Origin: Adlercreutzia faecimuris
Lineage (GTDB): Bacteria; Actinomycetota; Coriobacteriia; Coriobacteriales; Eggerthellaceae
Length of the DNA stretch: 64,000 nucleotides
Direction of reading: 5' to 3'
NCBI RefSeq assembly: GCF_022669055.1
Contig: NZ_JAJMLW010000003.1
Coordinates: 1-64,000, forward strand
Shown: piece by piece, positions 21,439-59,021 of the stretch
How the letters are laid out: each line of letters starts with the position of its first letter
How positions within the stretch are numbered: position 1 is the first letter of the stretch
Program-made: the position numbers and the translations under genes
The notes under the pieces: model-generated
The model's database searches: none
What the model was told of the DNA's origin: nothing
What the model saw: only the letters and a program-made list of their open reading frames with translations

Positions 21439-23031
21439 GTGAGCCAGTCCGCCCTTCCCGATCAGCGTGTCATCGTCGTCGACTTCGGCGCCCAGTACGG
21501 GCAGCTCATCGCGCGGCGCGTACGCGATTTGCACGTGTACTCCGAGATCGTCCCCTGCGACATCACCGCTGACGAGGTGCGGGCGATGGCCCCGGCGGCC
21601 ATCATCTTCTCCGGCGGCCCGGCGAGCGTCTACGCCGATGACGCGCCCTCCATCGACCCGGAGATCCTGGAGCTGGGCATCCCCGTGCTCGGGTTCTGCT
21701 ACGGCCAGCAGATCATGGCCGTGACGCTTGGCGGCGAGGTGGGGCACACCGAGAAGGGGGAGTACGGCCCGGCGCCGCTCACCCGCTGCGGCGAGAGCGC
21801 GCTGTTCGCGGACACACCCGGTGAGCAGACGGTGTGGATGAGCCATCGTGACGCGGTGAGCCGCGTGCCCGAGGGCTTCACGGTGACGTCAAGCACCGAC
21901 GTGTGCCCCGTGGCGTCGATGGAGTGCGCCGAGCGGCGCCTGTACGCGACGCAGTTCCATCCCGAGGTGCGCCACACCGCGTTCGGCAACGAGCTGCTGG
22001 CGAACTTCCTCTTCGGCATCTGCGGGCTTGTGCCCGACTGGACCATGGACTCGATCATCGAGGACTCGGTGGCGGCCATCCGCGAGAAGGTGGGGGAGGA
22101 TCGCGTCATCCTGGGGCTTTCCGGCGGCGTGGACTCGTCGGTGGTGGCGGCTCTGGGCGCGCGAGCCATCGGACGGCAGCTGGTGTGCGTGTTCGTGGAT
22201 CACGGGCTGCTGCGCAAGGGCGAGCCCGAGGAGGTGGAGGCCGTCTTCACCGAGCAGTTCGACGTGGACTTCATCCGCGTGGACGCGCGCGAGCGCTACC
22301 TGGAGCTGCTCGCCGGCGTGAGCGACCCGGAGGAGAAGCGCCGCATCATCGGCACGCAGTTCTGGAAGGAGTTCTTCGCCGTGGCGCAGCAGCTCGACGG
22401 CGTGAAGTACCTGGCCCAGGGCACCATCTACCCCGACATCATCGAGAGCGGCGCGCGCAAGACGGGCGGAAAGGCGTCCACCATCAAGAGCCACCACAAC
22501 CTGATCCCGTTCCCCGAGGGGGTGTCCTTCGAGCTCATCGAGCCGCTCGACCACTTCTTCAAGGACGAGGTGCGGGCGCTGGGCACCGCGCTCGGGCTGC
22601 CGGACCACATCGTGCACCGCCAGCCGTTCCCCGGTCCCGGCCTGGCCATCCGCATCATCGGCGACGTGGACGCCGAGAAGCTGGAGGTGCTGAAGAGCGC
22701 CGACGCCATCGTCCGCGAGGAGCTGGACGCCTACAACGAGCGCCTGTTCCAGGAGACCGGCGTGCGCGACAGCGAGCGCAGCGTGTGGCAGTACTTCGCG
22801 GTGCTCCCCGACATCAGGAGCGTCGGCGTGATGGGCGACGAGCGCACCTACGCCCGCCCGATCATCCTGCGCGCCGTGGAGAGCCAGGACGCCATGACCG
22901 CCGACTGGGCGAGGCTGCCCTACGAGCTGATAGCCCGCGTGAGCAGCCGCGTGGTGGCCGAGGTCCCGGGGGTGAACCGCGTGGTCTACGACGTGACGAG
23001 CAAGCCGCCTGCTACGGTGGAATGGGAGTGA
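21439..23031 (+). CDS. guaA: GMP synthase (glutamine-hydrolysing)
   Basis: A 530-residue enzyme converting XMP to GMP. The N-terminal class I glutaminase domain has the catalytic Cys87 in GFCYGQQIM with FHPEVRHT further along. The ATP pyrophosphatase has LSGGVDSSVVAAL. The C-terminal dimerisation domain has QPFPGPGLAIRIIGD and ends in the family's usual SKPPATVEWE. The GTG start follows GAGGAG. The 3' end is the known integration site for many mobile elements; here a foreign element begins right after the stop codon and the gene remains intact. Confidence 0.97.
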   Translation: MSQSALPDQRVIVVDFGAQYGQLIARRVRDLHVYSEIVPCDITADEVRAMAPAAIIFSGGPASVYADDAPSIDPEILELGIPVLGFCYGQQIMAVTLGGEVGHTEKGEYGPAPLTRCGESALFADTPGEQTVWMSHRDAVSRVPEGFTVTSSTDVCPVASMECAERRLYATQFHPEVRHTAFGNELLANFLFGICGLVPDWTMDSIIEDSVAAIREKVGEDRVILGLSGGVDSSVVAALGARAIGRQLVCVFVDHGLLRKGEPEEVEAVFTEQFDVDFIRVDARERYLELLAGVSDPEEKRRIIGTQFWKEFFAVAQQLDGVKYLAQGTIYPDIIESGARKTGGKASTIKSHHNLIPFPEGVSFELIEPLDHFFKDEVRALGTALGLPDHIVHRQPFPGPGLAIRIIGDVDAEKLEVLKSADAIVREELDAYNERLFQETGVRDSERSVWQYFAVLPDIRSVGVMGDERTYARPIILRAVESQDAMTADWARLPYELIARVSSRVVAEVPGVNRVVYDVTSKPPATVEWE

Positions 23032-23159
23032 GTTTTACCAGTTAAGAGGCACTATTTCGCTTCATTATTACTTTCTAATTCTTTGTAAAACTGTGTAATT
23101 CTCCATAAGGATTTTGCAAGCCACTCGATTATCCTCTCGCTTTCGCTTTGAATGAAAAC

Positions 23160-23198: not shown

Positions 23199-23577
23199 CC
23201 GATACTGTTTATTAGCGACTTCTGGAGTATCGCCGCCAAGGGAGTTCGAAAGCTTTGTTAAGTCTTCCTAAGAAGTGGAAAGAAATAGCCTGAATCAAGC
23301 CACTCGAAACTGTTGCTGGTAATGAGAAAAGTGGGCAATTGTGGAGAACAGTATCGTTTTGTACTCACCCCCGAAATCGAGCTTCAAAATGGACGTTTCC
23401 CCAGGAAAGATAGGGGTGTAAAAAATGCGTCCGATACTACGAATCAGGGCTTTTCGGGCACATTTCAAGACCAGATCTTCCTACGATTTACAGTATCGGT
23501 GAGTGTTCAAATCGCCTCAGCAACTACGAGAAAAATGGGGCAAATGTATGCGGGAGTAAATTCGATTGCCGATACTA
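23199..23577. repeat. Six copies of a GATACT-core repeat
   Basis: CCGATACT or its near variants occurs six times in 380 bases: plus strand at 23199, 23431 and 23569; minus strand at 23226-23232, 23349-23357 and 23491-23499. Copies at 23431 and 23569 share CCGATACTACGA. Copies at 23199 and 23491 share CCGATACTGT, and 23349 shares its CGATACTGT. They fill the otherwise gene-free gap between guaA and the repressor. The position next to the attachment site fits arm-type binding sites of a tyrosine recombinase. Confidence 0.8.
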
Positions 23578-23672: not shown

Positions 23673-24089
23673 TCAGACCTGGAGGCCTGCGCGCCAGGCT
23701 CTGTAGTCCTCCTCCGTCATGTCGCCACGCGTGAGCTCACCGCGCGCATTCACCCAAGCCTTGATGGCTGCATCGAGCTTCTGTGCATTGTCGGCCTTGG
23801 GATCGATCATGAGCGATCCATCCTCCTGGGGAACTAGTCCGAACTCGTCTTCCAGCTGGAACAAGACTCCAAGCGCGTCCTTTGCGCTTGTTATCTCGTG
23901 TCTGACAAGGGAGTCGGGCGTTACTCCTAGAGCCTTCGATATCTTCTCCAGCTGGCCTCTGTCGGGAGTCCTGTTGCCCAGCTCGTAGTTTCTGATGGCT
24001 GGTTCGGAGAAGCCTGCGGCCTCGCCCAATCCGGCCTGTGTCATATGTTTGCGCTTCCTGTAGAAGCGAATCAGTTCTCCAGTGTTCAT
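23673..24089 (-). CDS. XRE-family repressor of the element
   Basis: A 138-residue protein. Residues 1-60 form a lambda-like HTH (LIRFYRKRKHMTQAGLGEAA, then SEPAIRNYELGNRTP). The C-terminal 75 residues contain a short acidic domain (RGDMTEEDYRAWR) and no peptidase motif, so it would not self-cleave like LexA. It has RBS AAGGAG before the ATG. It is divergent from the excisionase/recombinase operon, as in many elements where the repressor faces the genes it silences. The palindromes ACAGTTCA/TGAACTGT in the shared region are its likely operators. Confidence 0.85.
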   Translation of the reverse strand: MNTGELIRFYRKRKHMTQAGLGEAAGFSEPAIRNYELGNRTPDRGQLEKISKALGVTPDSLVRHEITSAKDALGVLFQLEDEFGLVPQEDGSLMIDPKADNAQKLDAAIKAWVNARGELTRGDMTEEDYRAWRAGLQV

Positions 24090-24119
24090 AAGGCTCCTTA
24101 GCGCGTTGTCCTACGAATT

Positions 24120-24141
24120 CTAAAACAGTTCACAAATGAAC
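24120..24141. promoter_or_regulatory. Operator O1, 22-bp block shared with parA
   Basis: CTAAAACAGTTCA, then CAAA, then TGAAC: an inverted repeat with five-base core arms (GTTCA/TGAAC). The same 22 bases occur in the parA promoter at 36060-36081. It lies 30 bases upstream of the repressor start. Confidence 0.8.
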
Positions 24142-24149
24142 GCAACGTA

Positions 24150-24178
24150 TTGACCGTACGAAACTGAACTGTTAGTAT
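24150..24178 (+). promoter_or_regulatory. Promoter of the excisionase-recombinase operon
   Basis: TTGACC (24150-24155) and TAGTAT (24173-24178), 17 bases apart. A half operator TGAACTGTT (24165-24173) lies in the spacer and touches the -10 box, so a bound repressor would block polymerase. Confidence 0.75.
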
Positions 24179-24190
24179 GCCCTGAATGAA

Positions 24191-24210
24191 ACAGTTCAAT
24201 AGTGAACTGT
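24191..24210. promoter_or_regulatory. Operator O3
   Basis: ACAGTTCA (24191-24198) and TGAACTGT (24203-24210) form a perfect 8-bp inverted repeat with spacer ATAG. It sits right after the -10 box and before the ribosome site of the excisionase-like gene. Confidence 0.85.
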
Positions 24211-24225
24211 CCGAAAGGAGCATAC

Positions 24226-24423
24226 ATGGTAGATAACAAGCCAGAGATGATCAGAGCCGATGAGGTGGCGGAGAGGCTGGGAATCTCACGAACCTCCGCC
24301 TACTCGGTCATCAAGGAACTGAACCGTGAGCTTGCCGAGAAAGGCTACATGACGGTCACGGGAAAGGTGAGCAAGGACTACTTCGAGCAGCGCTATTTCG
24401 GCTGGAAGGACGGTATCCGATGA
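24226..24423 (+). CDS. Excisionase-like HTH protein
   Basis: A 65-residue DNA-binding protein with a MerR/excisionase-like fold: ADEVAERLGISRTSAYSVIKELN. RBS GAAAGGAG is seven bases before the ATG. The stop overlaps the ATG of the first recombinase (ATGA). Excisionases often sit just before the integrase. The HTH is in the family used as recombination directionality factors, but an activator or a recombinase subunit role is also possible. Confidence 0.8.
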   Translation: MVDNKPEMIRADEVAERLGISRTSAYSVIKELNRELAEKGYMTVTGKVSKDYFEQRYFGWKDGIR

Positions 24424-25493
24424 CAGCGGTGAGAGAGGAGAACGGGAGCTGGACGAGCCAGTTCTGGTACAAGGATATCTACGGGAAGCGCAAGCACAAA
24501 TGCAAGCGCGGGTTTGAGACGAAGGCCGATGCCGAGGCGTTCGAGCTTGACTACACGAACAGGGCGCGTGGCTCCATGGATATGAGGCTTTCCGACTTCG
24601 TAGACGTCTACGCCGAAGATGTGAAACCGACCATCCGAGAGTATACCTGGGCTACCCGTGAGTACATCATCAACGACAAGATCATCCCAAAGTTCGGCAC
24701 CAAGCGCATGAGGGACATAACCGTGCTCGACGTCATCGACTGGCAGAACGAGATCCTCGCCTTCAGGAAGGAAAACGGCGAGCCCTACTCGGAGACGTAT
24801 GTGCGAACGGTCAACAGCGCATTCGCCTCGATCATGAACCACGCCGAGCGGTACTACGGGCTCCGACCCAACCCGGTCAAGAAAGCGCCGCGCATCGGCT
24901 CCAAGAACGCTCGCGGCATAAACATCTGGTCCAAGGAGCAGTACCTGAGGTTCTCCGAGTCGCAAATCGACGACAAGCTGCTCTACACCGCCTTCGAGGT
25001 CCTCTATTGGACGGGTGTGCGAACAGGAGAGCTCCTCGCGCTCACTCCCGCCGACATCGACTTCGTGGGATCGACACTGCATGTCAGGCATTCCTACAGG
25101 CGCCTCAAGCGAAAAGACCTCATCACCGATCCTAAGACGGAGAAGTCGATTCGCCAGATAGCCCTTCCGGAGTTTTTGCGCGACGAGCTTCGGGACTTCG
25201 TCTACAACGTGTCCCCGACGGCTCACGACGAGCGCATATTCGCTGACCTCAGCTCGGCGAAGCTGAAGGCTGCCATTGCTAAGGGAAGCGCCATGACGGG
25301 CGTTCCCGTCATCAGGGTTCACGATCTTCGGCACAGTCACGTTTCCCTTCTGATAGAGATGGGGTTCTCGGCCGTGGCGATCGGCGACAGGACGGGACAC
25401 GAGTCTGCAGAAATCACGTTCCGCTATGGCCACATGTTCCCTGGCTCACAGGAGAAGATGGCCGATGCCTTGCAATCGTATAGGGAGGATTGA
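24420..25493 (+). CDS. Tyrosine recombinase 1 (integrase)
   Basis: A 357-residue phage-type integrase. The N-terminal arm-binding region carries WYKDIYGKRKHKCKRGFETK. The core-binding domain is at about residues 60-150. The catalytic residues are R in TGVRTGELL, H-x2-R in HDLRHSHVSLL, H in GHESAEITFRYGH and the Tyr in FRYGHMF. It overlaps the excisionase-like gene by four bases and is followed by an RHH gene and a second, related recombinase. The best guess for its reaction is integration into guaA; which of the two acts there is unknown. Confidence 0.93.
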   Translation: MTAVREENGSWTSQFWYKDIYGKRKHKCKRGFETKADAEAFELDYTNRARGSMDMRLSDFVDVYAEDVKPTIREYTWATREYIINDKIIPKFGTKRMRDITVLDVIDWQNEILAFRKENGEPYSETYVRTVNSAFASIMNHAERYYGLRPNPVKKAPRIGSKNARGINIWSKEQYLRFSESQIDDKLLYTAFEVLYWTGVRTGELLALTPADIDFVGSTLHVRHSYRRLKRKDLITDPKTEKSIRQIALPEFLRDELRDFVYNVSPTAHDERIFADLSSAKLKAAIAKGSAMTGVPVIRVHDLRHSHVSLLIEMGFSAVAIGDRTGHESAEITFRYGHMFPGSQEKMADALQSYRED

Positions 25494-25494
25494 T

Positions 25495-25863
25495 ATGACT
25501 TGCAAAAACGAGGACCGGGCGCGCCCCATGACCATCGCGTTCAGAGTCACCAAGGAGATGAACGAACGGCTAAACCTAATGGTCGCAATGAGCGGGTTGA
25601 CCAAGCAAGACTACATAATGTCCAAGCTATGCGACATGGAGATCACCGTTGTGCCCTCGCCCAGGGCGCTGAAAGCGCTACGTGACGAGATGCGCGAGGT
25701 CTGCAAGCAGCTCAACCGGCTCCGAAAGGGCGACAGCCCCAGCGAGCATCTGCTGGAGACATGTGACCTCCTAGCAGATGTCATGCTCGGGCTGCGAGGA
25801 GACGAGACCAGATCTGAGATCGAGGACGAGGACGAGATTCTCAAGAATATGGGGAGGTGTTAG
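25495..25863 (+). CDS. Ribbon-helix-helix protein between the recombinases
   Basis: A 122-residue protein starting with a ribbon-helix-helix fold (MTIAFRVTKEMNERLNLMVA) and continuing with a helical part that resembles MobC-like accessory proteins (LRDEMREVCKQLNRL). RBS GGGAGGA. It begins one base after the stop of recombinase 1, and recombinase 2 begins just after it, so the three are translated together. It could be a regulator or a recombination accessory; the MobC-like relaxosome role is less likely here because the relaxase lies 13 kb away next to its own MobC-like protein. Confidence 0.7.
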   Translation: MTCKNEDRARPMTIAFRVTKEMNERLNLMVAMSGLTKQDYIMSKLCDMEITVVPSPRALKALRDEMREVCKQLNRLRKGDSPSEHLLETCDLLADVMLGLRGDETRSEIEDEDEILKNMGRC

Positions 25864-25866
25864 CCA

Positions 25867-26952
25867 ATGCCCGCATACAAGTTGGATAATGGAAAATGGT
25901 GCGCATCATTCTATTACCGCCTGCCCGATGGCTCGCTCAAACAAAAGTACAAGCGCAGCTTCGAGACGGAGGACGATGCGCTCCGTTATGAGAACGAGTT
26001 CAGGGCGCGCGCCGAGAACCCGTGCAGCTTCCCATTCTCGGCCTTCGTGGACGTTTACCTGGCAGACATGAAGCCGCGCATTCGCTGGACGACCTACGAT
26101 ACCAAAAGGCTGTCCATCGGGAAATGGATCAAGCCCTACTTCGGGGAGAAGCTGATGGGAGACATAAAGCCCATTGATATCCTGCATTGGCAGGGATGGC
26201 TAGACGAGCAGAGACTCAAGAACGGCAATCCCTTGTCACCGACCTATGTCAGGAAACTCAACAGCGATCTGGCATCTCTGTTTAACCATGCCGAACGGAA
26301 CTACGGACTCAAGCCGAACCCGATGAAGAAGATCTCCAAGACAGGCAAAACGAGATCGGGCGAGATGCAGATATGGAGCAAGGAAGAGTTCAATCGGTTC
26401 CAGGACGCGATCTGCGACAAGGCTAAAAGCTACTATGCTTTCGATCTCCTGTTCTGGACGGGCATACGCGAAGGCGAGCTTCTAGCTCTCACGCCCACCG
26501 ACTTCGATTTTGAAAACCGCATCCTCACCATAGACAAAAGCCTCGCAAGAAAGGACGGTGGAGCGATTGTAGGCCCACCGAAGACGAAGAAGTCATACAG
26601 GAAAATCGCATTATCCGAGTTCTTATGCGAAGAGATCCGGGAGTACATCGAATTGATCCTGAAGATAGGGCCAGACGAGAGGATATTCGAGGGGATGACG
26701 AAATCGTTCCTCTGCAATGAGATGGATCGCGGCTGCAGGATCTCAGGTGTGAAGCGCATCAGGGTGCACGATCTGAGACATAGTCACGTTTCCATGCTCA
26801 TCCATATGGGCTTCAGCGTTGTTGCGATAGCCGAGCGCATGGGACACGAGACAACGGACATCACGTTCCGTTATGCTCACCTGCTCCCCAACTCTCAAGG
26901 AGTGATGGCCAACGCGCTTAACGAAGCCAAGGGAACTAAGAAAGTCGGATGA
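25867..26952 (+). CDS. Tyrosine recombinase 2 (paralogue of recombinase 1)
   Basis: A 361-residue integrase that is a clear paralogue of recombinase 1: FNHAERNYGLKPNPMKK against MNHAERYYGLRPNPVKK, and HDLRHSHVSMLIHMGFSVVA against HDLRHSHVSLLIEMGFSAVA. All catalytic residues are present: R in TGIREGELL, H-x2-R, H in GHETTDITFRYAH and the Tyr. The ATG follows GGAGGTG. Neither copy is broken. Two functional tyrosine recombinases side by side may act as a pair, as in some ICEs, or reflect divergence of a recent duplicate. Confidence 0.93.
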   Translation: MPAYKLDNGKWCASFYYRLPDGSLKQKYKRSFETEDDALRYENEFRARAENPCSFPFSAFVDVYLADMKPRIRWTTYDTKRLSIGKWIKPYFGEKLMGDIKPIDILHWQGWLDEQRLKNGNPLSPTYVRKLNSDLASLFNHAERNYGLKPNPMKKISKTGKTRSGEMQIWSKEEFNRFQDAICDKAKSYYAFDLLFWTGIREGELLALTPTDFDFENRILTIDKSLARKDGGAIVGPPKTKKSYRKIALSEFLCEEIREYIELILKIGPDERIFEGMTKSFLCNEMDRGCRISGVKRIRVHDLRHSHVSMLIHMGFSVVAIAERMGHETTDITFRYAHLLPNSQGVMANALNEAKGTKKVG

Positions 26953-27029: not shown

Positions 27030-27407
27030 GTGATGATGACTGGAGAAAACTCGATAACCTTTCCCGATGATGTGCGCGCTGCCTTCCTAGCGTTTCAGGA
27101 TGACTATCTTGCAGACGTGCTCAGGCTCTGGGATTGCGATCTCAGGGATTGGCATGATCCTGCAGTGATGATCTTCAGGTTCGAAAGTGACGATATCTTA
27201 CTCTGGCGAGAAATGAATGCACTGAAATGCAAAAAAGGCACTGTTGATGCCACGACCTCAAGAAGCTCTATTCCTGAAAAAGTAGAGGCAAGCATCGACA
27301 TAGATGCTTGCCTCTGTTGGCTGCCAGATGATTCTTACAGCGATTTCATTGGTTTCACCACAATTACCCATGATCTTCTACAGGCCATGAGCAGACTGTC
27401 GTTTTAG
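27030..27407 (+). CDS. Hypothetical acidic protein
   Basis: A 125-residue acidic protein, no family recognised. It contains WDCDLRDWHDPAVMIFRFE and a Trp/Asp-rich centre. No membrane segment or signal. AGGTG sits just before the ATG. Its last codon overlaps the stop of the convergent DUF262 gene. It could be a small partner of the adjacent restriction system, for instance an inhibitor, but nothing in the sequence proves it. Confidence 0.55.
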   Translation: MMMTGENSITFPDDVRAAFLAFQDDYLADVLRLWDCDLRDWHDPAVMIFRFESDDILLWREMNALKCKKGTVDATTSRSSIPEKVEASIDIDACLCWLPDDSYSDFIGFTTITHDLLQAMSRLSF

Positions 27408-29173
27408 AGTTTCTCGTAAGCTTCCTTTACAAGTTGTGACATCAAACCACGTCTCTTCTGCAAGAATGTTTCGTAATCCATCGTCTCGAAGTCAACGGGT
27501 AGCGCATGTTCTTCACATGCCTTCAAGTACGCGTCTTCCCCTAGATCCTTCCTGTATTTGCTCACATATTCTGATGGCGGATCATCGGAGATGTAGATGT
27601 TGTTCTGGTAGTCGACATAGGTGAAGTTTGCTCGATTGCTTCGGTCTGCTATGTGCCCAACCTCTTTTAGGTAGTTGTCCGGGAATAGATGGTGCTTGTC
27701 CACGGCCTTCTTCGTTCCGGAAGAATAAGGACCCACCAACTGAGATAATGGCACGGTGCTAAACAGGGCCTTAGCGCCAAGAACAATCTGAGAAGCTACG
27801 AAGCCGTACCAAGTGGGACCTGTTGCCTCGTTCGCATCGAGATCGGCTGGTAGTGTGATTCTGAAGTAATCGTCGGTAAGGAGCGCCTCGATGCTTCTAT
27901 CGAAATAGGCCTCGAACTCGTCCGAGTTGCTCAGCTTTGAGATATCGTTCAGCTGCTGCTCGAAATCGGATTCGAAAGAGCCCACGTAATAGGCAGTGAG
28001 AGCAGAAGCGAAATACCATCTGCGGACAAGTCTCTTGATCCTTAAGGGTTCCATCTTGAACTCGTACTTGCCGATAATGTAGAAAGCGTAATTGAAGAAG
28101 AGCGCATTTGACGAGGAGATCTGATCCGCGTTTATGTAGCCAGCTTCGCTGAGCGTGTTGATGAAGGCGTGCCAGTTGTTGAGGTCAAGTACGTGATCAA
28201 GGGCTTTTCCGAACTTTTCGAAGTTCTCCTCGCGCGTTTGAGCGCTCGTCTCTTTGGTCTTCAGATCGCGGCCTCTGAGTATCTGGTAGGCGTAGCGCAG
28301 GCGACCCCTCTTGAAGCCGACGCCGACGGTTGTTCTGATCAAGTGCGTGGGCGACACCTTTATCAATGGATTGTATGATGTGTTCTGCGCAGGTATATGG
28401 CTCTCCTCGCAGAAGAGTTCTATCCTCTCTCGCATCTCGGGCTCGTACACTGAAAGCAGCGTCATGATGAAGTCGTCCTGTTTCAACGCCTGTCCCTGGG
28501 AGTTAACCCTGACGAAGATGTCAGAGACCATCTCCTCATCGGCGTTGGCTGTGATGTTCAGTGTTGGCAGGTAGTACCGCTCAAGCCCAAGCAGCGCATT
28601 GAGCCCGTTCTCGATCCTGTCTTCCTCCTCGTCTGTCAGCTCAGCTAAGCCCTTCTTCAGGCTCGAATCGTTCAAGTCCTTGATGAACTCTCTCCTGAAC
28701 TTGCTCAACTTGTTCAGACGGTTCGCCTCAAAGACCTCTGATACGGCCGATATGTACCTGGGATCCCTGTCTGTCGATGCGTCGGCGTTCTTGAACTGCC
28801 TTTCGATGGGATCGTAGGCCACCCTGATGATGCGCTCGCTAAAGCTCTTGTCCTTGACTGGTATTCCGTAGAAGGAGGCGAGAAGTGCGGTCAGCCTCTG
28901 CTGCCCATCGATGACGAGCTCCTTCGGGGAGCTGTAAGACTTCTCATTGGCTCCAATGGCCTCCGTTTTACCGGCCTCTTCTACTGGTGACTCCCAAAGC
29001 ATGATGTATCCGATAGGGTATCCACGAAGCATCGAATCGAGCAGATCTCTAACCTTGTCGTTCTTCCAGACGAACGGACGCTGGAGGTCAGGCAGGCCGA
29101 TCTTTCCGCTTCTCACATCTTTTAAGATATTGCCCACTTCGAGCGTTACAGGTGTGTATATAGAGTTTCCCAT
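27404..29173 (-). CDS. DUF262/HNH (GmrSD-like) protein
   Basis: A 589-residue protein with an N-terminal DUF262 domain. DLQRPFVWKNDKVRDLLDS and IDGQQRLTALLA (residues 88-99) carry the DGQQR motif of that ParB-like nucleotidase fold. The C-terminal part has KKAVDKHHLFPDNYLK, an HNH-like, DUF1524-type nuclease motif. Together these resemble GmrS-GmrD, which cut modified DNA, fused in one chain. It is the last gene of a leftward operon (nine bases behind the type III restriction subunit), so it is part of the same defence unit. It might target modified phage DNA that the type III enzyme cannot cut. Confidence 0.83.
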   Translation of the reverse strand: MGNSIYTPVTLEVGNILKDVRSGKIGLPDLQRPFVWKNDKVRDLLDSMLRGYPIGYIMLWESPVEEAGKTEAIGANEKSYSSPKELVIDGQQRLTALLASFYGIPVKDKSFSERIIRVAYDPIERQFKNADASTDRDPRYISAVSEVFEANRLNKLSKFRREFIKDLNDSSLKKGLAELTDEEEDRIENGLNALLGLERYYLPTLNITANADEEMVSDIFVRVNSQGQALKQDDFIMTLLSVYEPEMRERIELFCEESHIPAQNTSYNPLIKVSPTHLIRTTVGVGFKRGRLRYAYQILRGRDLKTKETSAQTREENFEKFGKALDHVLDLNNWHAFINTLSEAGYINADQISSSNALFFNYAFYIIGKYEFKMEPLRIKRLVRRWYFASALTAYYVGSFESDFEQQLNDISKLSNSDEFEAYFDRSIEALLTDDYFRITLPADLDANEATGPTWYGFVASQIVLGAKALFSTVPLSQLVGPYSSGTKKAVDKHHLFPDNYLKEVGHIADRSNRANFTYVDYQNNIYISDDPPSEYVSKYRKDLGEDAYLKACEEHALPVDFETMDYETFLQKRRGLMSQLVKEAYEKL

Positions 29174-29182
29174 GCTGTGTTC

Positions 29183-31744
29183 CTAAATCTTATTCGTGAC
29201 AGGCTGAGCGAGTGCCAGCAAATCGTTCCAGGAATCGGACTTTGCGATATCGTCCTCATAGGCGATCAGGTATCCCCAGTGACTGTTGGAGAACACATCG
29301 TCGATGGCGAGCTTCCTCACGAGCTGTTCTGCTGCCTTCCGCTTCGCCTGCACCTTCTCATCATCTCGGCCTCGCGCGTCTTTGCCCTCGATGATCCAAT
29401 ACGTTCCCTCATCGTCTAAGGCGACGAAATCTGGGAAGTAGCGGTCTTTGGGCGTGTAGTAGATGTAAGCACCCATGAAAGGATGCAGCCTGTTCCACCA
29501 GACTATGCGAGGGGATGTGTTGAGCAAGCGTGCGAGCATGTACTCGCCAGTGTACGAATCAAACGATTCCTCCGCATAGAGTGATTTGAACCAGCCGGAA
29601 TAGACGCGACCTCTCACGAATTCATCCCGGGTATCGATCTGGTCGTAGACCTTCTCGCCAATCGGGAGAGAGTAGCCGGTGCATTCGATAGCCTTGGCTT
29701 TGATGACGGGCACTTCCTGCGTTGATCTCAGTGTCTCGACTATGAAATCCTTGATGGTCTGCCTCAGCTGCTCTTGGGCAGAAGACAACGATTTGACTGT
29801 CCATGTGTCTAAGTTCGATGCGCTCATGAACCTCGGGATAAGGTATTGCGCGATATATCGCGCCGTCCCCTCGGTTTTCGGAACCATCGACATGTTCAGC
29901 ACCAGCTTGACAAGGGCGTCCCGTGCGTCCTCGTCGCTCACATGAACGGAGTCTACCTCGGCGCTTTCGGTGTCCACTGCGCGTAGGGACTTGCCCAGTA
30001 CGGCAACTATCTCCTTGCGGTAGAGCACATCACCGGTTGAGGTGACCCTTCGTGCAGCGGCAGCGAGTGTGTCATCGGAGATACCGGAGAGGTCTATCTC
30101 GGGCTGCTTCGCCTCTATGATCGTCACCGGGAAGTCGTATGAGGTTCCAAGGAATGCCGGATTGGGATCAATCGTGATGTAAGTCAGATCAGGCTCATCT
30201 GTGAGGCTAGGATCGTTGACCGACTGGACTAGGACGGTCGGCTTGTTTGACGCAGCGTCGGTATTTGTATCGTCACCAAATGAGGTTCGCGTGTAAGGAG
30301 CTGGTGCATTAGAAGCCTCCTGATAGCCTTCAGTCGCAGAATCTGATCCGAAGGCAGCACCTGTGGTTTCGTCGCCTTGGCCGATATGCGCAATCTCATA
30401 CTCGAAGCGAGACCGATCATTTGAGCTAACCGCTTCTTCGAGACCGAACTGCCTGAGCACGTTTTCCTGTTCGAGAAGCTCCTTGAAGGATTGGTGCGAG
30501 ATGATGTCCAGCTGATCGACCTGCCTGATGCCGGTGTATTTCCCGAAAGGCAGGCGGAGCCCGCGCCCCATGGTCTGCTGTGTCAAGACCTCTGAGGCCA
30601 TGGCTCTCAGCGTCACGATCACGGCGATATTCTTGACATCCCACCCTTCCTTAAGCTTATTCACGCTGACGACCGCCTTGACGGGCGAGTTGGGATCGTC
30701 CAGATCTTCGAGCATCCTTTGCGTGAGGTCGTCGTCATGCTCGGAGTCCACCTGCAGAACGGCAAGCTCGCGTCCGAAGAACTCAGGTCCCCGCAACAGA
30801 TTTGTTATCTCGGTCGCATGGGACACGTCCGAGCAGACCACGAAAAGCACGGCGTTCAACTCGGGCAGCTCGTTCTGCGCTATATAGGCATCGTATGCCG
30901 ACTGCTTGATGTCCCGAAGCTGGAGCGCGTCCCTCAGCTGCTGCTCCTCGGATGCCTCGTCTTCGCCGTACCCGCCTTTTCGGAAAGCGAGGACGGGCGT
31001 TTTCACGTACTCGTCTGCGATGGCGCGGTAGAGAGGGTACTTGTAGATGACGTGGTCGCCTTCGAGGATGGAGGCGGTCAGCCCGATGGTCGCAGCAGGT
31101 TCGAGCTCGCGGATCGCCGAATGGAATGCCGCCGCGCTGGTCGAATAGAGATGGGACTCGTCCGCGATGAGCACGAGATCGTCCTGGCTCTTCAGGTAGT
31201 CGAAAAGCACGCCAGCGTTTTCGTCGAAGCGGCGCGGCTTCCGCCTCATGGCGTCCTGGCTTCCGTCGCTTGTCCCGCCTTCCTCCTTCTTAGGGGCGAT
31301 GAGCTGCTGGATGTTGAAGATGAATGCGAGCAGTGGAGTCTCTCTTCCAAACGAGAGCTGTGCTGCTCCGTTCTGCCTCGCGATCCAAGGCGAGTAGTCT
31401 TGCGGCGTGACCACATCCGGAGGGATCTGTGCGCCCTCGATGTAGCGGCCGCTTCCGGGGGTGAAGTTCTTGACCGTCTTCGCCTGAACAGTCTTACCGG
31501 GGGTGACGATCACGACATTGCCCACGCCCTGCCTGCGAAGGTACTCCATGAATGCGGCCATAAGATAGGTCTTTCCGACGCCGGTGGCAAGGTTCATGAC
31601 TTGGATGACCTCTGGATCGTAATCGCCATCGAGTGTGAATATGAGCTTGCGAAGTGCTTCCTTGTTCGGAGTGCGCAAGTCGAACTCCGAGCTGATGGAC
31701 TCGATAAGATCTGAATCGAAGTTGATGTTGAGTCGTTTTGCCAT
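29183..31744 (-). CDS. Type III restriction endonuclease, Res subunit
   Basis: An 853-residue helicase-nuclease. The helicase superfamily 2 part has the Walker A NLATGVGKT (51-59) and the DEAD-box-like LIADESHLYS. GLRLPFGKYTGIRQVDQLDI lies in the helicase C part. Near the C-terminus, FPDFVALDDEG, then WIIEGKDARG, gives the D...ExK of a PD-(D/E)XK nuclease. The length is a little under that of typical Res subunits (about 900-1000). The stop of the Mod gene overlaps its start by one base, so the pair is translationally coupled. Confidence 0.92.
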   Translation of the reverse strand: MAKRLNINFDSDLIESISSEFDLRTPNKEALRKLIFTLDGDYDPEVIQVMNLATGVGKTYLMAAFMEYLRRQGVGNVVIVTPGKTVQAKTVKNFTPGSGRYIEGAQIPPDVVTPQDYSPWIARQNGAAQLSFGRETPLLAFIFNIQQLIAPKKEEGGTSDGSQDAMRRKPRRFDENAGVLFDYLKSQDDLVLIADESHLYSTSAAAFHSAIRELEPAATIGLTASILEGDHVIYKYPLYRAIADEYVKTPVLAFRKGGYGEDEASEEQQLRDALQLRDIKQSAYDAYIAQNELPELNAVLFVVCSDVSHATEITNLLRGPEFFGRELAVLQVDSEHDDDLTQRMLEDLDDPNSPVKAVVSVNKLKEGWDVKNIAVIVTLRAMASEVLTQQTMGRGLRLPFGKYTGIRQVDQLDIISHQSFKELLEQENVLRQFGLEEAVSSNDRSRFEYEIAHIGQGDETTGAAFGSDSATEGYQEASNAPAPYTRTSFGDDTNTDAASNKPTVLVQSVNDPSLTDEPDLTYITIDPNPAFLGTSYDFPVTIIEAKQPEIDLSGISDDTLAAAARRVTSTGDVLYRKEIVAVLGKSLRAVDTESAEVDSVHVSDEDARDALVKLVLNMSMVPKTEGTARYIAQYLIPRFMSASNLDTWTVKSLSSAQEQLRQTIKDFIVETLRSTQEVPVIKAKAIECTGYSLPIGEKVYDQIDTRDEFVRGRVYSGWFKSLYAEESFDSYTGEYMLARLLNTSPRIVWWNRLHPFMGAYIYYTPKDRYFPDFVALDDEGTYWIIEGKDARGRDDEKVQAKRKAAEQLVRKLAIDDVFSNSHWGYLIAYEDDIAKSDSWNDLLALAQPVTNKI

Positions 31745-33744: not shown

Positions 33745-33755
33745 TTCGCCTCATT

Positions 33756-34745: not shown

Positions 34746-35189
34746 GATCCCTGCCCTTCTCTCGCGCCCCATCTGTATTACATACGTTGATTACTCATTC
34801 TAAGCGATGAAGCCGAATCACCGCTTTGGGTGTCCCTTTTTCGCATAACTTCTCCTCCCGGGCGGAGCATCTGCCCACGCGAACGTACGAATTCCTCCAC
34901 CCACGTGCTCTCCGAATCTCGCGCATGCCCCTTCGCCTTCCTTGAACGTCGCACCCTCGCACAGCGCCGCTCGTTGCCGCGCAAGGGCCGCGATGCTTTT
35001 CCGATTTCTTTTCAGGGAGGTCTTCGCTTCGCATGTCCCAGAAAACAAATGGGAAAACCAGCACGGCGAAGATGCTTCCTCGATACGCCGTTTCGCTTCC
35101 TCCCTTGCACGGCCGCGACGCTATGCGCCATGCGCCTCACAAGGCAGGCCAAAGGGGCCGAGCCGAAGACGAATTGGAGGTCGATTCGA
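34746..35189. other. Gene-free gap upstream of the defence operon
   Basis: I see no supported gene in these 444 bases. It holds the divergent control region of the WYL operon (about 34770-34800) and the lead to the YraN-like gene. TGTATTACAT occurs at about 34776. The rest is GC-mixed sequence without clear hairpins. Confidence 0.5.
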
Positions 35190-38523: not shown

Positions 38524-39753
38524 ATGCCGATCCTGAAGCCGATATCGGGACACGGTTCGGTGGCGGGCATCAGGCGCTACCTGGAGAAGAAGAACCGCGC
38601 CATCGGCCGCGACGTCCTGAACCTCCCGCTCGACGGAGAGTGGGTGTGCGAAGACCGCGGCCAGAGCGCGATCTTCGTCGACTGGGACGCGGAGATGGAC
38701 GCCACGAGGGAGGCCTACGGCACCAACTCCGAGTGGCGCGGGCTCAAGGCGCGCACCTTCAAGCACTTCGTCATCTCGCCCGACCCGGAGGACCGCATCG
38801 ACCTCGCGTCCCTGCGCGAGCTCTCGCAGGCATGGGTAGGTGTGTACTTCCCGGATCACGAGGTAGCGATCGTCTACCACGAGGACAACGAGGGGCGCAT
38901 CCCCCACGCGCACGTTGTCGTGAACAACGTGAACCTGAAGACCGGCTACCGCATGCAGACCGAGCATCCCGAGGATCTGAACCGGGCGCTCCAGGACATG
39001 GCGCGCGACCGGGGGCTCACGGGATTCTCGAACGTGATGCCCGAGAGGTCGCAGAAGAGCGCAGAGCCCAAAACGTCCCGTACGCGCCAGGGCATCTACT
39101 TCGGGCGCGCAGAGAAGGAGATCATGCGGTCCGGCAACTACTCCTGGGTGGGCGACATCAGGGCGCGCGTGGCGCTCGCGAAGAACACCTCCCGTAGCGA
39201 GGCCGACTTCATGGAAGCCTTGCGCCGCCTCGGCATCGACGTGGCCGACAACTCGTCGAAGGCACGGCGCGACGACTGGATCTTCTCTTTCGCCGACGAG
39301 TCGACGAAGAAGGTGTCCGGCGAGAGGCTCGGCTTCACTTTCGGCAAACAGATGCTGAGGAGTCGGTTCGAGAGGCAGTCGGCCTACCACCCCGAGCGCA
39401 GGACCGAGGGCGAGATACGCCGCCGCGCGGTGAGCGCCGTGGAGCTGAACGACCTTCAGGACCTCTCAAGCCTCTCTGCCGTCCTTGAGACGTGCGCTAA
39501 GTTCGATATCCGATACCTGGAGGACTTCGATGCGAGGGCGGCCACCCTCGCCCGCAGGGATCAGCTGGGCAGCGAGGGCTTCAGGCGTCTGGCCGAGGCG
39601 CGCATCTACGTAGCCGAGAACAACCTCATGACGCACAGGAGCAGAAGCGAATCCGCCCCGGCATCGACGAGACGGCGCGGAAACCAGCACCAGCACGCGC
39701 CAAGGACGCAGGAGGCCGAACAGAGGCGCAACCGAGAGAGGAGCGACAGATGA
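38524..39753 (+). CDS. Relaxase (MOB_P-like)
   Basis: A 409-residue relaxase that nicks and covalently joins the transferred strand. The N-terminal 200 residues hold the domain: IRRYLEKKN with Tyr19 as the likely catalytic Tyr; KHFVISPDPEDR; and the metal-binding RIPHAHVVVNN (His128, His130). These fit the Relaxase (PF03432-like) fold. The C-terminal half is helical and Arg-rich at the end. Operon with the MobC-like protein; its stop overlaps the next gene by four bases. Confidence 0.9.
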   Translation: MPILKPISGHGSVAGIRRYLEKKNRAIGRDVLNLPLDGEWVCEDRGQSAIFVDWDAEMDATREAYGTNSEWRGLKARTFKHFVISPDPEDRIDLASLRELSQAWVGVYFPDHEVAIVYHEDNEGRIPHAHVVVNNVNLKTGYRMQTEHPEDLNRALQDMARDRGLTGFSNVMPERSQKSAEPKTSRTRQGIYFGRAEKEIMRSGNYSWVGDIRARVALAKNTSRSEADFMEALRRLGIDVADNSSKARRDDWIFSFADESTKKVSGERLGFTFGKQMLRSRFERQSAYHPERRTEGEIRRRAVSAVELNDLQDLSSLSAVLETCAKFDIRYLEDFDARAATLARRDQLGSEGFRRLAEARIYVAENNLMTHRSRSESAPASTRRRGNQHQHAPRTQEAEQRRNRERSDR

Positions 39754-45896: not shown

Positions 45897-45919
45897 CTTT
45901 TGCTCCTTGTTTCGAAAAA

Positions 45920-45948
45920 GGGTGGGACGCCCATCGAGCGCCCCACCC
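45920..45948 (-). terminator. Terminator between adhesin and sortase
   Basis: GGGTGGG (45920-45926) pairs with CCCACCC (45942-45948), with a further inner stem. On the minus strand TTTTTC follows, so it ends or attenuates the transfer-operon transcript before the sortase gene. Confidence 0.75.
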
Positions 45949-46000
45949 TGCCTGTCTTAGCTCCCGTCTAAGATTCCTGTCGCTTGCGCGAAGGGTCGGT

Positions 46001-53790: not shown

Positions 53791-56385
53791 CTACCCTCTG
53801 CCCCTCTTCGCGTTGTTCTCGAAGAGGTGCGCGCGCTTTAGCTGCGCGATCTCCTCGGGCTTGGTGTTCCATAGGTCGTAGAGCGCGCCTTTAGGGAAGT
53901 CGTCCCGGATGGGCACGCGCGCGCCTCCTGCGACGAGCAGCCCCTCTCCGGCCTTGATTGACTCGTCGATGTACTCCTTTTCCGCTGCCGAGAGGGAGAG
54001 CATGTCGGCCCATGCGGCGAGGTCTTGGCTCGCCTGCTTGTGCAGCAGCATGAAGTCCGAGTTCAGCACCATGGTGCGGGCGCGCTCGTGGGTGAGCATG
54101 TGGGAGGTGTTCTGCGAGATGCCGGTGCAGATGAGGTTGAACTTGCGTCCCTCCGCCCAGAACTTCGCGAAGTAGTCGATGATGGTGGGGTGCCCGAAGA
54201 GCGACTGGACCTCGTCGATGTAGAGCCAGGTGGTTATGCCCCGCTCGAAGTTCGCGTACATCCTGTTGCGCACCGCCTCAAGCGCGGTGAGCATGCCGAA
54301 CACGCGCATGTTGGTGGACAGGTCGTGCAGGTCGATGTTTGTGGTTCGGTTGTCGAAGCTCACGTTGGACTGGCGGTTGAAGAAGGAGAGCGCGCCTGTG
54401 ACGTAGCGCTCGTAGCGAAGGGCAATGTCTCGCGCCTCGGCCTCGGGCTGGCCGCTCAGTATCTCGTGGAAGTCAGACAGCGTCGGCATGCCCCGCCCGT
54501 CGGCGCATCTTGAATATGCCGCCTCCACGCATCTCGTGATGATCGACTTGTCGGCTTCGGGAAGGCCTTCTGAGGACTCCGCCATCATCGCGCTTGAGAG
54601 CGCGAGGAACGCGTCGATCTTGAACGCGAGCTGGGCGGCGTCCGCGCGACCTTCCACGTCTGAGAGGTCGAAGGGGTTGAGCGCGGTGTCGGCGTCGGGG
54701 GCGAGCCGGACGTTCACGCCGCCGAGCGCCTCGATGAGGTTTCCGTACTCTCCGGCGGGGTCGAAGATGATGATCTCGTCCTCCGGGTAGGCGAGCACGG
54801 TGTTGGTGATCTCGCGCTTCACGGAGAAGGACTTCCCGGAGCCGGGCTTGCCGCAGACGAACCCCATGGGGGAGGCGAGCTTCTTGCGGTTGCAGATGAC
54901 GAGGTTTCCGGACTGCTTGGACTGCCCGTAGTAGCCCCCGCCCTCCTGGTTGAGCTCAAGCGATGCGAAGGGCATCTGCATGGCTATCTGGCCCGTGGTG
55001 AGGTAGCGGGTGACGTTGATGTGGTTCATGCCTAGGGGGAGCACCGAGTTCAGGGCCTGGCGCTGCCGATAGTAGAGCGGCTCTATCCCGAGCGAGTTGC
55101 CCTGCCCGATAGACACGATCTGGTCAACTTGCCGCTCAAGCGCATCCACGGTGTCTGCGTAGGTGTAGATGAGGCCGGTGTAGGTGAAGAGGCGCTCGTT
55201 CTTGTTGCGAAGGAAGTCCAGGAGCTCCTCGGCCTCTTCCTTCGAGTACCTGAGCTCCGGCGGAAGGATCGTGTAGTCGTAGCCCTTCTTCATCGCGCTC
55301 ATCTGCTCGTCGATGATCTCCTTGTCCATCCAGTCGAGCTGGCGCTTCACGAGCGCGAGCGCGTCGGACTGCGCGATGGGCTGGACATGCAGGTTCACCG
55401 ACAACGGCATGGGAAGGTCGATGATCTTGGCGAGGTAGTCGTCTTCGAGCATCGAGCCGAACGTGCGGATGGAGACCACGCAGCCGTAGGTGTCGTCCAC
55501 CCGGAAGATGTCGGCCCTGCCGTGCGGCTTGAAGTCGATGAGCGCTGGCGCTATGAGGTCCTTCGTCCTCGTGCTCGACACGGGGCTCACCTTGTCCCAG
55601 GTGAAGGTGAAGGGGGATTTCGGGCGCAGCTGCGACTGGATCGCCTCGATGCGCTCCGTGCCGTTCAGGGCGTGCGCCTCGCAGCGGATGCGCGAGAGCG
55701 TGTCGATGACGTCGCCCTTGATGCGCGATAGCTTCGGCACCGCCTCCCAGACGTCGTCCGCGCCCACCATGTAGGTGAGGTAGCGGTGGCGCGTGAGGTT
55801 CGAGACCCCCTCGCGCATCTTGTCGTTCAAGATCTGGTTGTACTCCTTGGCGTACTTCTCCGTGTCGGGATCGGACGCCTTGAAGAATCGCTTCTTGCCG
55901 ATCTCCTCGTCGGGGATGGGGACGTTGGCGATCGTGAGCTGGACGCAGGAGTCCGCCCCGAAGTAGTTGTAGAGCGAGGAGAGCACCGTGAAGATGTTCT
56001 GCTGGCTCTCGCGGCGCGCCGACTGGTAGGAGATGTCCGAGAACTCGATCGTCTGCGAGAAGAGGCCTTCCTCTACCTGGGCTATGCCGTCCTTGTAGAT
56101 GGCGTCGTAGCCGATGTAGGAGGTGATCTCGCCCGCCTGGGCGCGCGCCTTCTTCTGTCGCTTGAGCTTCTCCTCGTGGGCCTTCTTGGATCTATCCGAC
56201 TTGCTGGCAGAGCCCATCAGCTGCTTTATGAAGCTCGCCGAGCCCGACCTCTCGCGCCTGGCCTTGGCCCTCGCTGCGCGTTCGGATCTGATGCGCGCCT
56301 TCGCGAGCCTCTTCTCAGCCTTGAGCTTCTCCTTGTCGCTCGTTCTCTCTTTCCTTGCACTTTTCGCATTCTCTCGTTGGCTCAT
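53791..56385 (-). CDS. VirB4-like conjugation ATPase
   Basis: An 864-residue ATPase. Walker A is VCGKPGSGKSFSVKREI (near residue 510); Walker B is WLYIDEVQSLF. The N-terminal 60 residues are highly basic. VirB4/TraE/TraC-type proteins power the type IV secretion channel. The start lies inside the PrgI gene (71 bases overlap), a tight coupling. Confidence 0.93.
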   Translation of the reverse strand: MSQRENAKSARKERTSDKEKLKAEKRLAKARIRSERAARAKARRERSGSASFIKQLMGSASKSDRSKKAHEEKLKRQKKARAQAGEITSYIGYDAIYKDGIAQVEEGLFSQTIEFSDISYQSARRESQQNIFTVLSSLYNYFGADSCVQLTIANVPIPDEEIGKKRFFKASDPDTEKYAKEYNQILNDKMREGVSNLTRHRYLTYMVGADDVWEAVPKLSRIKGDVIDTLSRIRCEAHALNGTERIEAIQSQLRPKSPFTFTWDKVSPVSSTRTKDLIAPALIDFKPHGRADIFRVDDTYGCVVSIRTFGSMLEDDYLAKIIDLPMPLSVNLHVQPIAQSDALALVKRQLDWMDKEIIDEQMSAMKKGYDYTILPPELRYSKEEAEELLDFLRNKNERLFTYTGLIYTYADTVDALERQVDQIVSIGQGNSLGIEPLYYRQRQALNSVLPLGMNHINVTRYLTTGQIAMQMPFASLELNQEGGGYYGQSKQSGNLVICNRKKLASPMGFVCGKPGSGKSFSVKREITNTVLAYPEDEIIIFDPAGEYGNLIEALGGVNVRLAPDADTALNPFDLSDVEGRADAAQLAFKIDAFLALSSAMMAESSEGLPEADKSIITRCVEAAYSRCADGRGMPTLSDFHEILSGQPEAEARDIALRYERYVTGALSFFNRQSNVSFDNRTTNIDLHDLSTNMRVFGMLTALEAVRNRMYANFERGITTWLYIDEVQSLFGHPTIIDYFAKFWAEGRKFNLICTGISQNTSHMLTHERARTMVLNSDFMLLHKQASQDLAAWADMLSLSAAEKEYIDESIKAGEGLLVAGGARVPIRDDFPKGALYDLWNTKPEEIAQLKRAHLFENNAKRGRG

Positions 56386-57194: not shown

Positions 57195-59021
57195 TCACGC
57201 TTCCATAAGCGCCCCCTCCCTTCTCGCCCGGTACGCCCTGAAGTCGAACGCCCCCGCATCCTCTGCGGCCTTGAGCGCCCCGTGCCTCGGGTGCGTCTCA
57301 AGCGGGTACTTCTTGTCCTTGAACGCCTGCGCGCCGTTTATGAGCACGAGCGCCTCGTCGCGCGGGAGCCTCGCCACCTCGGAGGCCTGCATGAGCTCTC
57401 GCTCTATGAGGCCGTAGTTGTGCGTGTAGGTGGGGTTCGCGCCCCGCGAGTCGTTCACGGTGATGTTGGCGACGGTCTGCTTGCCGATCATGTCGGCGAT
57501 CTTCTGGTTGGTGTCTGTCGACTTGCCCCCGAGGAACAGCAGCGTGTCGCAGGCGTTCATGATGGTCTTGGCGTTGTTCTCCCCGTATGACTCCTCAAGC
57601 TGGGAGAGGGACTGCAGGATCATCGAGACCGCGATGTTGCGGCTTCGCGTGACCGTGATCATGCGCTCGAAGTCCGGGATGGTGCCGATGTTGGCGAACT
57701 CGTCGAACATGAAGTGGACGCATCTGGGCAGGCGTCCCGAGAAGCGCGAGAGCGCCGTCTCGCAGAGCGAGTCGAGCGCCTGCTGCATGAGCAGCGCGAA
57801 CACGAAGTCGAAGGTCGAGTCGGTGTCCGACATCGAGCAGAAGAGCGCCACCTTCCTGTGCGCGTCGCCCATGCGGTCGAGCTCCATCTCGTCGTAGCGC
57901 AGAAGCTCCCTCATCTCGGCGATGTCGAACGGCTTCATCCGCACGTTGCAGGAGACCATGATGGACTTGAGCGTCTTTCCCGCCGCCACCTTGAACTGCT
58001 TGTAGCTTGAGAGCGAGAAGTCGTCCTCGGGGCGCACGGGCGCGGCCACCTTCACCCATTCGAAGCCTCCGGCGCCGTTGTCGAACGCGCGGGACGCGCG
58101 GTCGTACTTCTTGGCCGAGGGCTTCCTCACGAGCCTCTCTCCGGTCTCAAGCTCGTTGAAGAGCATGTCGAGCGGGCTCAGGTAGTCCTCGTCGTCCTCG
58201 CGGGCGTCCGCGAGCGAGAGCAGCGACAGGAGCCCCGGCACGTTCCTGTCCTCCTCAGGGCAGTGCAAGAGGAGGTAGGAGACGAGGGCCGTGTAGAGGA
58301 GCTTCTCGGCGTTCTCCCAGAACGGGTCCCCTGCATGGTCCTTGTCGCCGGTGGTGTTCTTGATGAGGCACTCCACGAAGCGCAGCGTCGCCGCCTCGCC
58401 GTCGATGTATGCGATGGGGTTGAAGTGCATGGAGCTTGCGAAGTCTATGGTGTCGAACGTCTTGATCTCGTATCCGAGCCCTTCGAGGACGTGGCCCATG
58501 TCGTGGATGAGCGTGCCCTTGGGGTCGGTGATGAAGTAGTTGGCGTTTCCCTGCATGAGGTTCGGCTTCACGAAGTAGCGCGTCTTGCCCGTGCCGGGTC
58601 CGCCGATGACGAGCACGTTGTCGTTCGTCTCGGTCTTCTGGTCGTGGGCGGTGTCGATCAGGCGGATGCTCGCCTGCTTGGTGAGGATGATGTTGTTGTC
58701 GGCGTCCTTCCGATCCGAGTACGCCTCGATCTCCTTCGCCGTCGCCCAGCGTGCGCTCCCGTGTTCCTCGCCCTTGCGGTAGCGCCCCCTGCGCTCCCAC
58801 CATCTGACCCATGCGAGCCAGACGGCGCACGCGCAGGCGCACCCGATAGCGAGCGGCAGCGGGTCCATTGACGGGATCGCACCTTGCGCCGCGAGGCCCA
58901 TCGCCGTGGAGACGAGGTCGGCCCCGGAGCTTCCTGCGGCCATGACGGCGGCCGTGGCGACGTTGCCGAAAAGGAGGGCCGCGCCCGATAGCGCCGCGAT
59001 GAGGATGAGCTCCGACTTCAT
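57195..59021 (-). CDS. VirD4/TraG coupling protein
   Basis: A 608-residue coupling ATPase. Two N-terminal membrane helices (about 5-27 and 53-72). Walker A is VIGGPGTGKTRYF (about 138-150), followed by FITDPKGTLIHDMG. Walker B is HFMFDEFANIGTIPDFE. It brings the relaxase-DNA complex to the channel. It overlaps the PcfB-like gene by four bases (ATGA). Confidence 0.93.
   Translation of the reverse strand: MKSELILIAALSGAALLFGNVATAAVMAAGSSGADLVSTAMGLAAQGAIPSMDPLPLAIGCACACAVWLAWVRWWERRGRYRKGEEHGSARWATAKEIEAYSDRKDADNNIILTKQASIRLIDTAHDQKTETNDNVLVIGGPGTGKTRYFVKPNLMQGNANYFITDPKGTLIHDMGHVLEGLGYEIKTFDTIDFASSMHFNPIAYIDGEAATLRFVECLIKNTTGDKDHAGDPFWENAEKLLYTALVSYLLLHCPEEDRNVPGLLSLLSLADAREDDEDYLSPLDMLFNELETGERLVRKPSAKKYDRASRAFDNGAGGFEWVKVAAPVRPEDDFSLSSYKQFKVAAGKTLKSIMVSCNVRMKPFDIAEMRELLRYDEMELDRMGDAHRKVALFCSMSDTDSTFDFVFALLMQQALDSLCETALSRFSGRLPRCVHFMFDEFANIGTIPDFERMITVTRSRNIAVSMILQSLSQLEESYGENNAKTIMNACDTLLFLGGKSTDTNQKIADMIGKQTVANITVNDSRGANPTYTHNYGLIERELMQASEVARLPRDEALVLINGAQAFKDKKYPLETHPRHGALKAAEDAGAFDFRAYRARREGALMEA

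What the first reader, a model, noticed from the sequence alone, without database searches (positions are those of the whole stretch)
23199..23577. Six GATACT-core repeats mark the left end of the element
CCGATACT or a one-base variant occurs six times, three in each orientation, in a 380-base gene-free stretch. Two subclasses are visible (CCGATACTGT and CCGATACTACGA). The position next to the attachment site fits arm-type sites for a tyrosine recombinase. Two subclasses could match the two paralogous recombinases.
Basis: partly seen in the sequence, partly recalled or inferred. Interest (0 to 1): 0.62.

Follow-up and report, generated by a model that had tools for sequence, protein, structure and literature searches.

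The report
Split docking sites of twin integrases
The six repeats are most likely docking sites for the enzymes that insert and remove a mobile DNA element next to a bacterial gene, and they seem to belong to the second of two sister enzymes, whose sites split off from a formerly shared set when the enzyme gene was duplicated.

Summary
In detail: CGATACT occurs six times (three per strand) at 23200-23576, against 52 times in the whole 2.79-Mb genome. The stretch is the left end of an about 50-kb integrative and conjugative element in the 3' end of guaA. Its right end lies outside the window, at C3:72945. A seventh copy sits there inside a 23-bp exact inverted repeat of the left end.

Six elements carry this pair of paralogous integrases. 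One shares the word; in the other four the word differs but has changed in concert. Elements with a single integrase carry a homotypic direct repeat at 11/12-bp spacing in the left arm (62 of 69; 3.6 expected). None of the six paired-integrase elements does; there the slot holds a CGATACT-class next to a GTACTCA-class site. The paired integrases stem from one duplication. Int2's arm-binding domain is divergent, Int1's conserved; the catalytic domains show the reverse.

Best reading: arm-type sites, CGATACT for Int2 and GTACTCA for Int1, used in a mixed recombination complex. Binding is not shown.

The parts
21439..23031 (+). guaA (GMP synthase); its 3' end is the integration site
   Evidence: NCBIfam NF000848 equivalog, 1.9e-221
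23020..23031 (+). attL core GAATGGGAGTGA (codons EWE-stop); partner attR core GAGTGGGAATAA lies outside the window at C3:72945-72956
23117..23125 (+). class D repeat CAAGCCACT, copy 1 (similar words in the other paired-integrase left arms)
23200..23206 (+). class A site 1 (CGATACT)
23226..23232 (-). class A site 2 (CGATACT); absent in A. hattorii
23296..23304 (+). class D repeat CAAGCCACT, copy 2
23347..23369 (-). 23-bp composite of one class A and one class B site; exact inverted copy at C3:72830-72852 (outside the window)
   Evidence: slot aligned across elements
23350..23356 (-). class A site 3, inside the composite
23361..23367 (+). class B site GTACTCA, 11 bp from class A site 3
23415..23422 (-). 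class C site (TTTACACC / GGTGTAAA)
23432..23438 (+). class A site 4
23492..23498 (-). class A site 5
23553..23560 (-). class C site (TTTACTCC / GGAGTAAA)
23570..23576 (+). class A site 6
23673..24089 (-). HTH_3 protein of the integration module
   Evidence: recognition region conserved among elements with different class A words
24420..25493 (+). Int1, tyrosine recombinase with Arm-DNA-bind_4, SAM-like and catalytic domains
25426..25863 (+). NikA-like protein between the two integrase genes
25867..26952 (+). Int2, paralog of Int1 (46% identity), proposed binder of class A
38524..39753 (+). relaxase (MobA/VirD2-like)
53791..56385 (-). VirB4-like ATPase (P-loop_TraG under its Pfam cut-off; DUF87 above)
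57195..59021 (-). type IV coupling protein (T4SS-DNA_transf)

Best explanation
The stretch is the left attachment-site arm of an about 50-kb integrative and conjugative element inserted in the 3' end of guaA. The CGATACT copies are arm-type binding sites, most likely for Int2, the second of two paralogous tyrosine recombinases. GTACTCA sites (one left, five right) are most likely the arm-type sites of Int1. At both ends one site of each class lies side by side at 11-bp spacing, so integration and excision probably use a mixed Int1-Int2 complex that bridges these arms to the shared guaA core. Shown: the sites, the two ends, concerted divergence, one integrase duplication, the homotypic-to-heterotypic contrast. 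Inferred: that Int2 binds class A, that Int1 binds class B, and that both act in one complex.
For: Att core of guaA tail codons at both ends; A. hattorii matches the right end (97%) up to the core end, C3:72955, and not beyond. 23-bp exact inverted repeat holding A+B at both ends. Each of six paired-integrase elements has its own class A word, left+right: CGATACT 6+1 (window) and 5+1 (A. hattorii), GATACTGC 3 (G030, left only), GAGATTG 4 (G041, left only), GGTACT 4+1 (G081), GGTAACA 2+1 (G000:C2); slots and orientation largely kept. 104-row tree: Int1 clade of 6 (SH-aLRT 98) and Int2 clade of 6 (99) are sisters with the same internal branching; 92 other rows outside. Left arms with an exact 7-mer direct repeat at 11/12 bp: 62 of 69 single-integrase (3.6 expected; 29 of 34 clusters at 90% Int identity), 0 of 6 paired. 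Arm-domain identity between elements, Int1 62% v. Int2 45%, lower for Int2 in 10 of 10 pairs; catalytic domain 55% v. 64%, reversed in 10 of 10. Residues 13-33: 76% v. 45%. The class B word changes by at most one base among the four paired elements where it was scored; class A by 1-6 among five. The HTH recognition region SEP(A/G)IRNYELGNRTP stays the same in three elements with three class A words.
Against: No binding data. Paired-integrase elements are one clade, so the homotypic/heterotypic contrast is one evolutionary event, and the 10 pairs are not independent. Retention of residues conserved in single integrases does not separate Int1 from Int2 in the arm domain (0.68 v. 0.63). The class A word of G000:C2 is weak (three copies, a count reached in 99 of 100 shuffles) and its left arm shows no clear class B site. 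Class A is very unequal (6 left, 1 right). A third class (C) has no assigned binder, so the number of site classes does not simply equal the number of integrases. Core half sites were not analysed.
Confidence: 0.66

Rival explanations
1. The sites are arm-type sites, but of a single integrase (Int1) or of both without distinction; Int2 only catalyses or regulates.
For: All data on att cores, right end and inverted repeat fit any integrase of the element.
Against: Class A was seen only with Int2; Int1's arm domain is conserved across elements whose class A words differ, while class B stays nearly constant.
Confidence: 0.15
2. The sites bind an accessory or directionality protein (RDF/Xis-like), for example the NikA-like or HTH protein, or an unrecognised one, not an integrase.
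For: Xis sites also lie between core and arm sites in lambda (passages); class C shows that other repeat classes exist here.
Against: The HTH recognition region and the NikA-like TI(A/G)FR strand are conserved in elements with different class A words; both proteins also occur in single-integrase elements, which lack the A-B slot.
Confidence: 0.13
3. The sites are operators for transcription control of the module.
For: Cluster of inverted and direct repeats next to an HTH gene.
Against: The stretch lies 3' of both neighbouring genes; the int promoter region 24090-24419 has no copy; a copy sits at the far end of the element beside attR.
Confidence: 0.04
4. Chance or a composition artefact.
For: The region is A+T-richer than its surroundings.
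Against: P about 8e-17 against the genome rate, 0 of 60 shuffles, and concerted change in related elements.
Confidence: 0.01

Closest known systems
Heterobivalent arm-binding integrases and their arm-type sites (lambda Int; IntS of ICEMlSymR7A)
   Same: Clustered short sites in the arms beside a core, read by an N-terminal arm-binding domain; ICEMlSymR7A has five arm sites in a 283-bp attP (passage; lambda passages).
   Different: One integrase and one arm-site class there; here two paralogs and apparently two arm-site classes, paired side by side.
ICEs integrated in the 3' end of guaA (e.g. ICE_SmiB6_guaA of Streptococcus)
   Same: Same target gene end and direct repeats of the guaA 3' end (passages).
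   Different: The passages speak of a site-specific tyrosine integrase, not of a pair; sequence kinship with this family was not compared.
XerC/XerD
   Same: Two paralogous tyrosine recombinases acting together (abstracts).
   Different: No arm domain or arm sites (recalled); here a mobile element.
IME8 int operon (Int1, Int2, Hp3) and GInts (three integrases plus GinD)
   Same: Several integrase-like genes side by side, all needed for excision (abstract; abstract and passages).
   Different: IME8 targets acnL-yolD; arm sites were not described in what was read; sequence kinship was not compared.

Membership tests
guaA-targeting tyrosine-recombinase ICE | Insertion in the guaA 3' end with the core repeated at both ends | tested here: met
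guaA-targeting tyrosine-recombinase ICE | Tyrosine recombinase with arm-binding, core-binding and catalytic domains | tested here: met
   catalytic residues present by eye
guaA-targeting tyrosine-recombinase ICE | Relaxase, coupling protein, VirB4-like ATPase | tested here: met
   (the VirB4-like match is weak)
guaA-targeting tyrosine-recombinase ICE | Excision as a circle and transfer | not testable with these tools
   no experiment
arm-type sites | Same site class in both arms | tested here: met
   6 left, 1 right
arm-type sites | Co-variation with the element's own proteins | tested here: met
   (concerted change; binder inferred)
arm-type sites | Bound by the N-terminal domain of the integrase | not testable with these tools
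   needs a binding assay
XerCD-like paired recombination | Both recombinases catalytically intact | tested here: met
   by eye for the window's pair; exceptions elsewhere: G081 Int1 has Q for one H, G041 Int2 is broken near its contig end
XerCD-like paired recombination | Each recombinase on one half of the core | not tested
   core half sites not analysed

The most novel reading that the evidence does not exclude
An integrase gene duplication split a homotypic pair of arm sites into a heterotypic pair, giving an obligate two-integrase recombination complex in which each paralog reads its own arm-site class. Because all these elements share one guaA core and stack there in tandem, drift of the arm code would be what keeps co-resident elements from cutting each other out.
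Probability: 0.42. Interest if true: 0.75.

Novelty: new variant of a known kind. Interest (0 to 1): 0.6.

Why it matters
It would give a natural example of how a protein-DNA recognition code splits after gene duplication, with the unsplit form still present in dozens of relatives, and it predicts which integrase reads which arm site. It also offers a reason why arm sites diversify: elements that share one integration site and stack next to each other need another label to tell their ends apart. Arm codes that differ between relatives are of use for building orthogonal integrase tools.

Tried and rejected
Operator and chance readings: rejected, see rivals. Reading the two CGATACT subclasses as the two recombinases' sites: rejected, because A. 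hattorii and G030 do not keep the split cleanly and another class (GTACTCA) fits the second recombinase better. Int2 in viral contigs: one weak hit of 24%, led nowhere. Search for the empty site through the right flank: no match in 20 other genomes (own genome only), so the uninterrupted attB was not seen. Search for further paired elements in 396 genomes of the class: none beyond those already known. Residue-retention test in the arm domain: inconclusive. One paper search gave nothing.

Rows dropped before counts: the 69 single-integrase left arms are those for which guaA (or an att-like start) and the HTH gene gave cut points; 27 further loci were left out there and tried more roughly (26 had an integrase; 20 with a repeat, but the words of L105-L107 look like chance; L056 had no integrase match). 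Of the 25 class-level loci, 23 had a repeat; many are genomes already counted. The seven failures are L058, L075, L091-L094 and L096; L075 does carry a near-exact pair. In some of the 62 (for example L085, L116) unrelated 11-bp repeats occur beside the AACTCA pair. The tree dropped six duplicate rows.

Full report
What is there. CGATACT occurs six times at 23200-23576, three per strand. The whole genome has 52 copies in 2.79 Mb, so 0.006 are expected in this stretch. The stretch lies between guaA and an HTH gene, followed by int1, a NikA-like gene and int2. A relaxase, a coupling protein and a VirB4-like ATPase lie further in: an integrative and conjugative element.

The ends. guaA ends in codons for VEWE at 23017-23031. 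The contig holds a second guaA tail, TIEWE, ending at C3:72956 outside the window. The element is thus about 49.9 kb. Adlercreutzia hattorii carries a 98% identical Int1 and a right end 97% identical up to C3:72955, within a base of the end of the core, where similarity stops. A pattern for the core was found in 17 of 18 genomes searched, 59 places in all, with none for the reversed control pattern; many places are neighbours on one strand, so elements appear to stack in tandem at guaA in this family of bacteria.

The right arm holds one CGATACT (C3:72843) inside a 23-bp exact inverted copy of left-arm bases 23347-23369. That composite joins one CGATACT (class A) and one GTACTCA (class B) at 11-bp spacing. 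Class B (G[TA]ACTCA) occurs once left and five times right, three of them at 11-bp steps (72590, 72601, 72612). A further class, C (TTTAYWCC), occurs in both arms.

Relatives. Of 59 loci in one-genome-per-species bacterial contigs that encode an Int1 relative, 41 show the end of guaA in the flank and 56 an HTH relative. The literal word CGATACT clusters only in A. hattorii among them. In 138 genomes of the same family, 39 have a relative at E 1e-60 or better. Paired integrases occur in six elements: the window's, A. hattorii, G030, G041, G081 and a second one in this same genome (G000:C2, about 46 kb, beside a guaA-like gene). 396 genomes of the class gave no more.

Concerted change. Aligned left arms show class A slots at homologous places, but the word differs per element and is the same within an element: CGATACT (6 left + 1 right), CGATACT in A. 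hattorii (5+1), GATACTGC (3 left; G030), GAGATTG (4 left, one at a non-homologous place; G041), GGTACT (4+1; G081), GGTAACA (2+1; G000:C2). Except for CGATACT in G030, which shares the core GATACT, no element has another's word. The right arms of G030 and G041 were not available. In shuffles the counts are strong for the window and A. hattorii (0 of 100 reach them), fair for G041 (1 of 100) and G030 (6 of 100), and not significant alone for G000:C2 (99 of 100); G081's six-letter word was not tested as such. Dispersed sites that change together are expected for binding sites of a protein that the element itself encodes.

One site pair or two kinds. Single-integrase elements have in the left arm a direct repeat at one helical turn, such as TTTGTAATCAC-TTTGTAATCAC or TGATAGCA at 11-bp spacing. 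An exact 7-mer repeat at 11 or 12 bp is present in 62 of 69 such arms (3.6 expected from shuffles) and in 29 of 34 clusters; at 11 bp alone 60 arms have one, at the other ten spacings tested 0 to 13. None of the six paired-integrase left arms has one; their slot holds class A next to class B (G000:C2: no clear class B). In three of four available paired right arms, 11-bp repeats persist. So the slot is homotypic with one integrase and heterotypic with two.

Who binds. Int1 and Int2 come from one duplication with parallel branching. Between elements, Int2's arm domain has diverged (45% identity v. 62% for Int1) while the catalytic domains show the reverse (64% v. 55%), each in 10 of 10 pairs, which share branches and are not independent. 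Class A varies, class B hardly. The HTH recognition region and the NikA-like strand stay nearly constant while class A varies. This points to Int2 for class A and Int1 for class B. A test of residues conserved in single integrases did not separate the two.

Mechanism proposed. Int1 and Int2 dock side by side on the composite at each end through their N-terminal domains and reach over to the shared guaA core; further class A sites on the left and class B sites on the right set direction and end identity. Shown are the anatomy and its evolution; docking, partnership and direction are inferred.

Known and new. Arm-type sites, guaA as target, and elements that need two or three integrases are all in print (passages or abstracts). 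Searches for paired integrases with arm sites, for heterotetramers in such elements and for such elements in Eggerthellaceae listed no paper that describes a split arm code; only listings, abstracts and passages were read. I call it a new variant of a known kind.

Noticed in passing
L125 (G001, A. hattorii) C1:705974, 709794, 712215 and L004: Three att cores in a row, with two short element-like segments (3.8 and 2.4 kb) that carry arm-like ends; int1-int2 and guaA lie 1.7 Mb away at 2.437 Mb, as if an inversion had split the array.
   Followed up: partly
L101:1104-2405 (G000:C2): A second guaA-like gene lacking the glutaminase domain (433 aa), beside a second paired-integrase element in the same genome.
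   Followed up: partly
L001:8615-10609 (C3:68615-70609): One 664-aa ORF with a serpin domain followed by an ADP-ribosylglycohydrolase domain, inside the element.
   Followed up: no
window 27404-34772, strand -: Defence-like cluster: GmrSD_N protein, ResIII helicase, N6/N4 DNA methylase, WYL-domain protein.
   Followed up: no
window 45219-49768, strand -: Surface protein with thioester, T-Q ester and SpaA domains next to a sortase.
   Followed up: no
L001:13532-15244 and about C3:77700-78200: Reverse transcriptase gene just outside attR, and a CRISPR-like repeat array further on.
   Followed up: no
window 23117-23125 and 23296-23304: CAAGCCACT repeated twice; similar words occur in left arms of the other paired and of several single-integrase elements, binder unknown.
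   Followed up: partly
L120 (G002:C1:1558974-1559359): Left-arm remnant 72% identical to the window's, beside guaA and interrupted by a transposase-like insert, with no Int1 relative found in that genome at E 1e-60.
   Followed up: no
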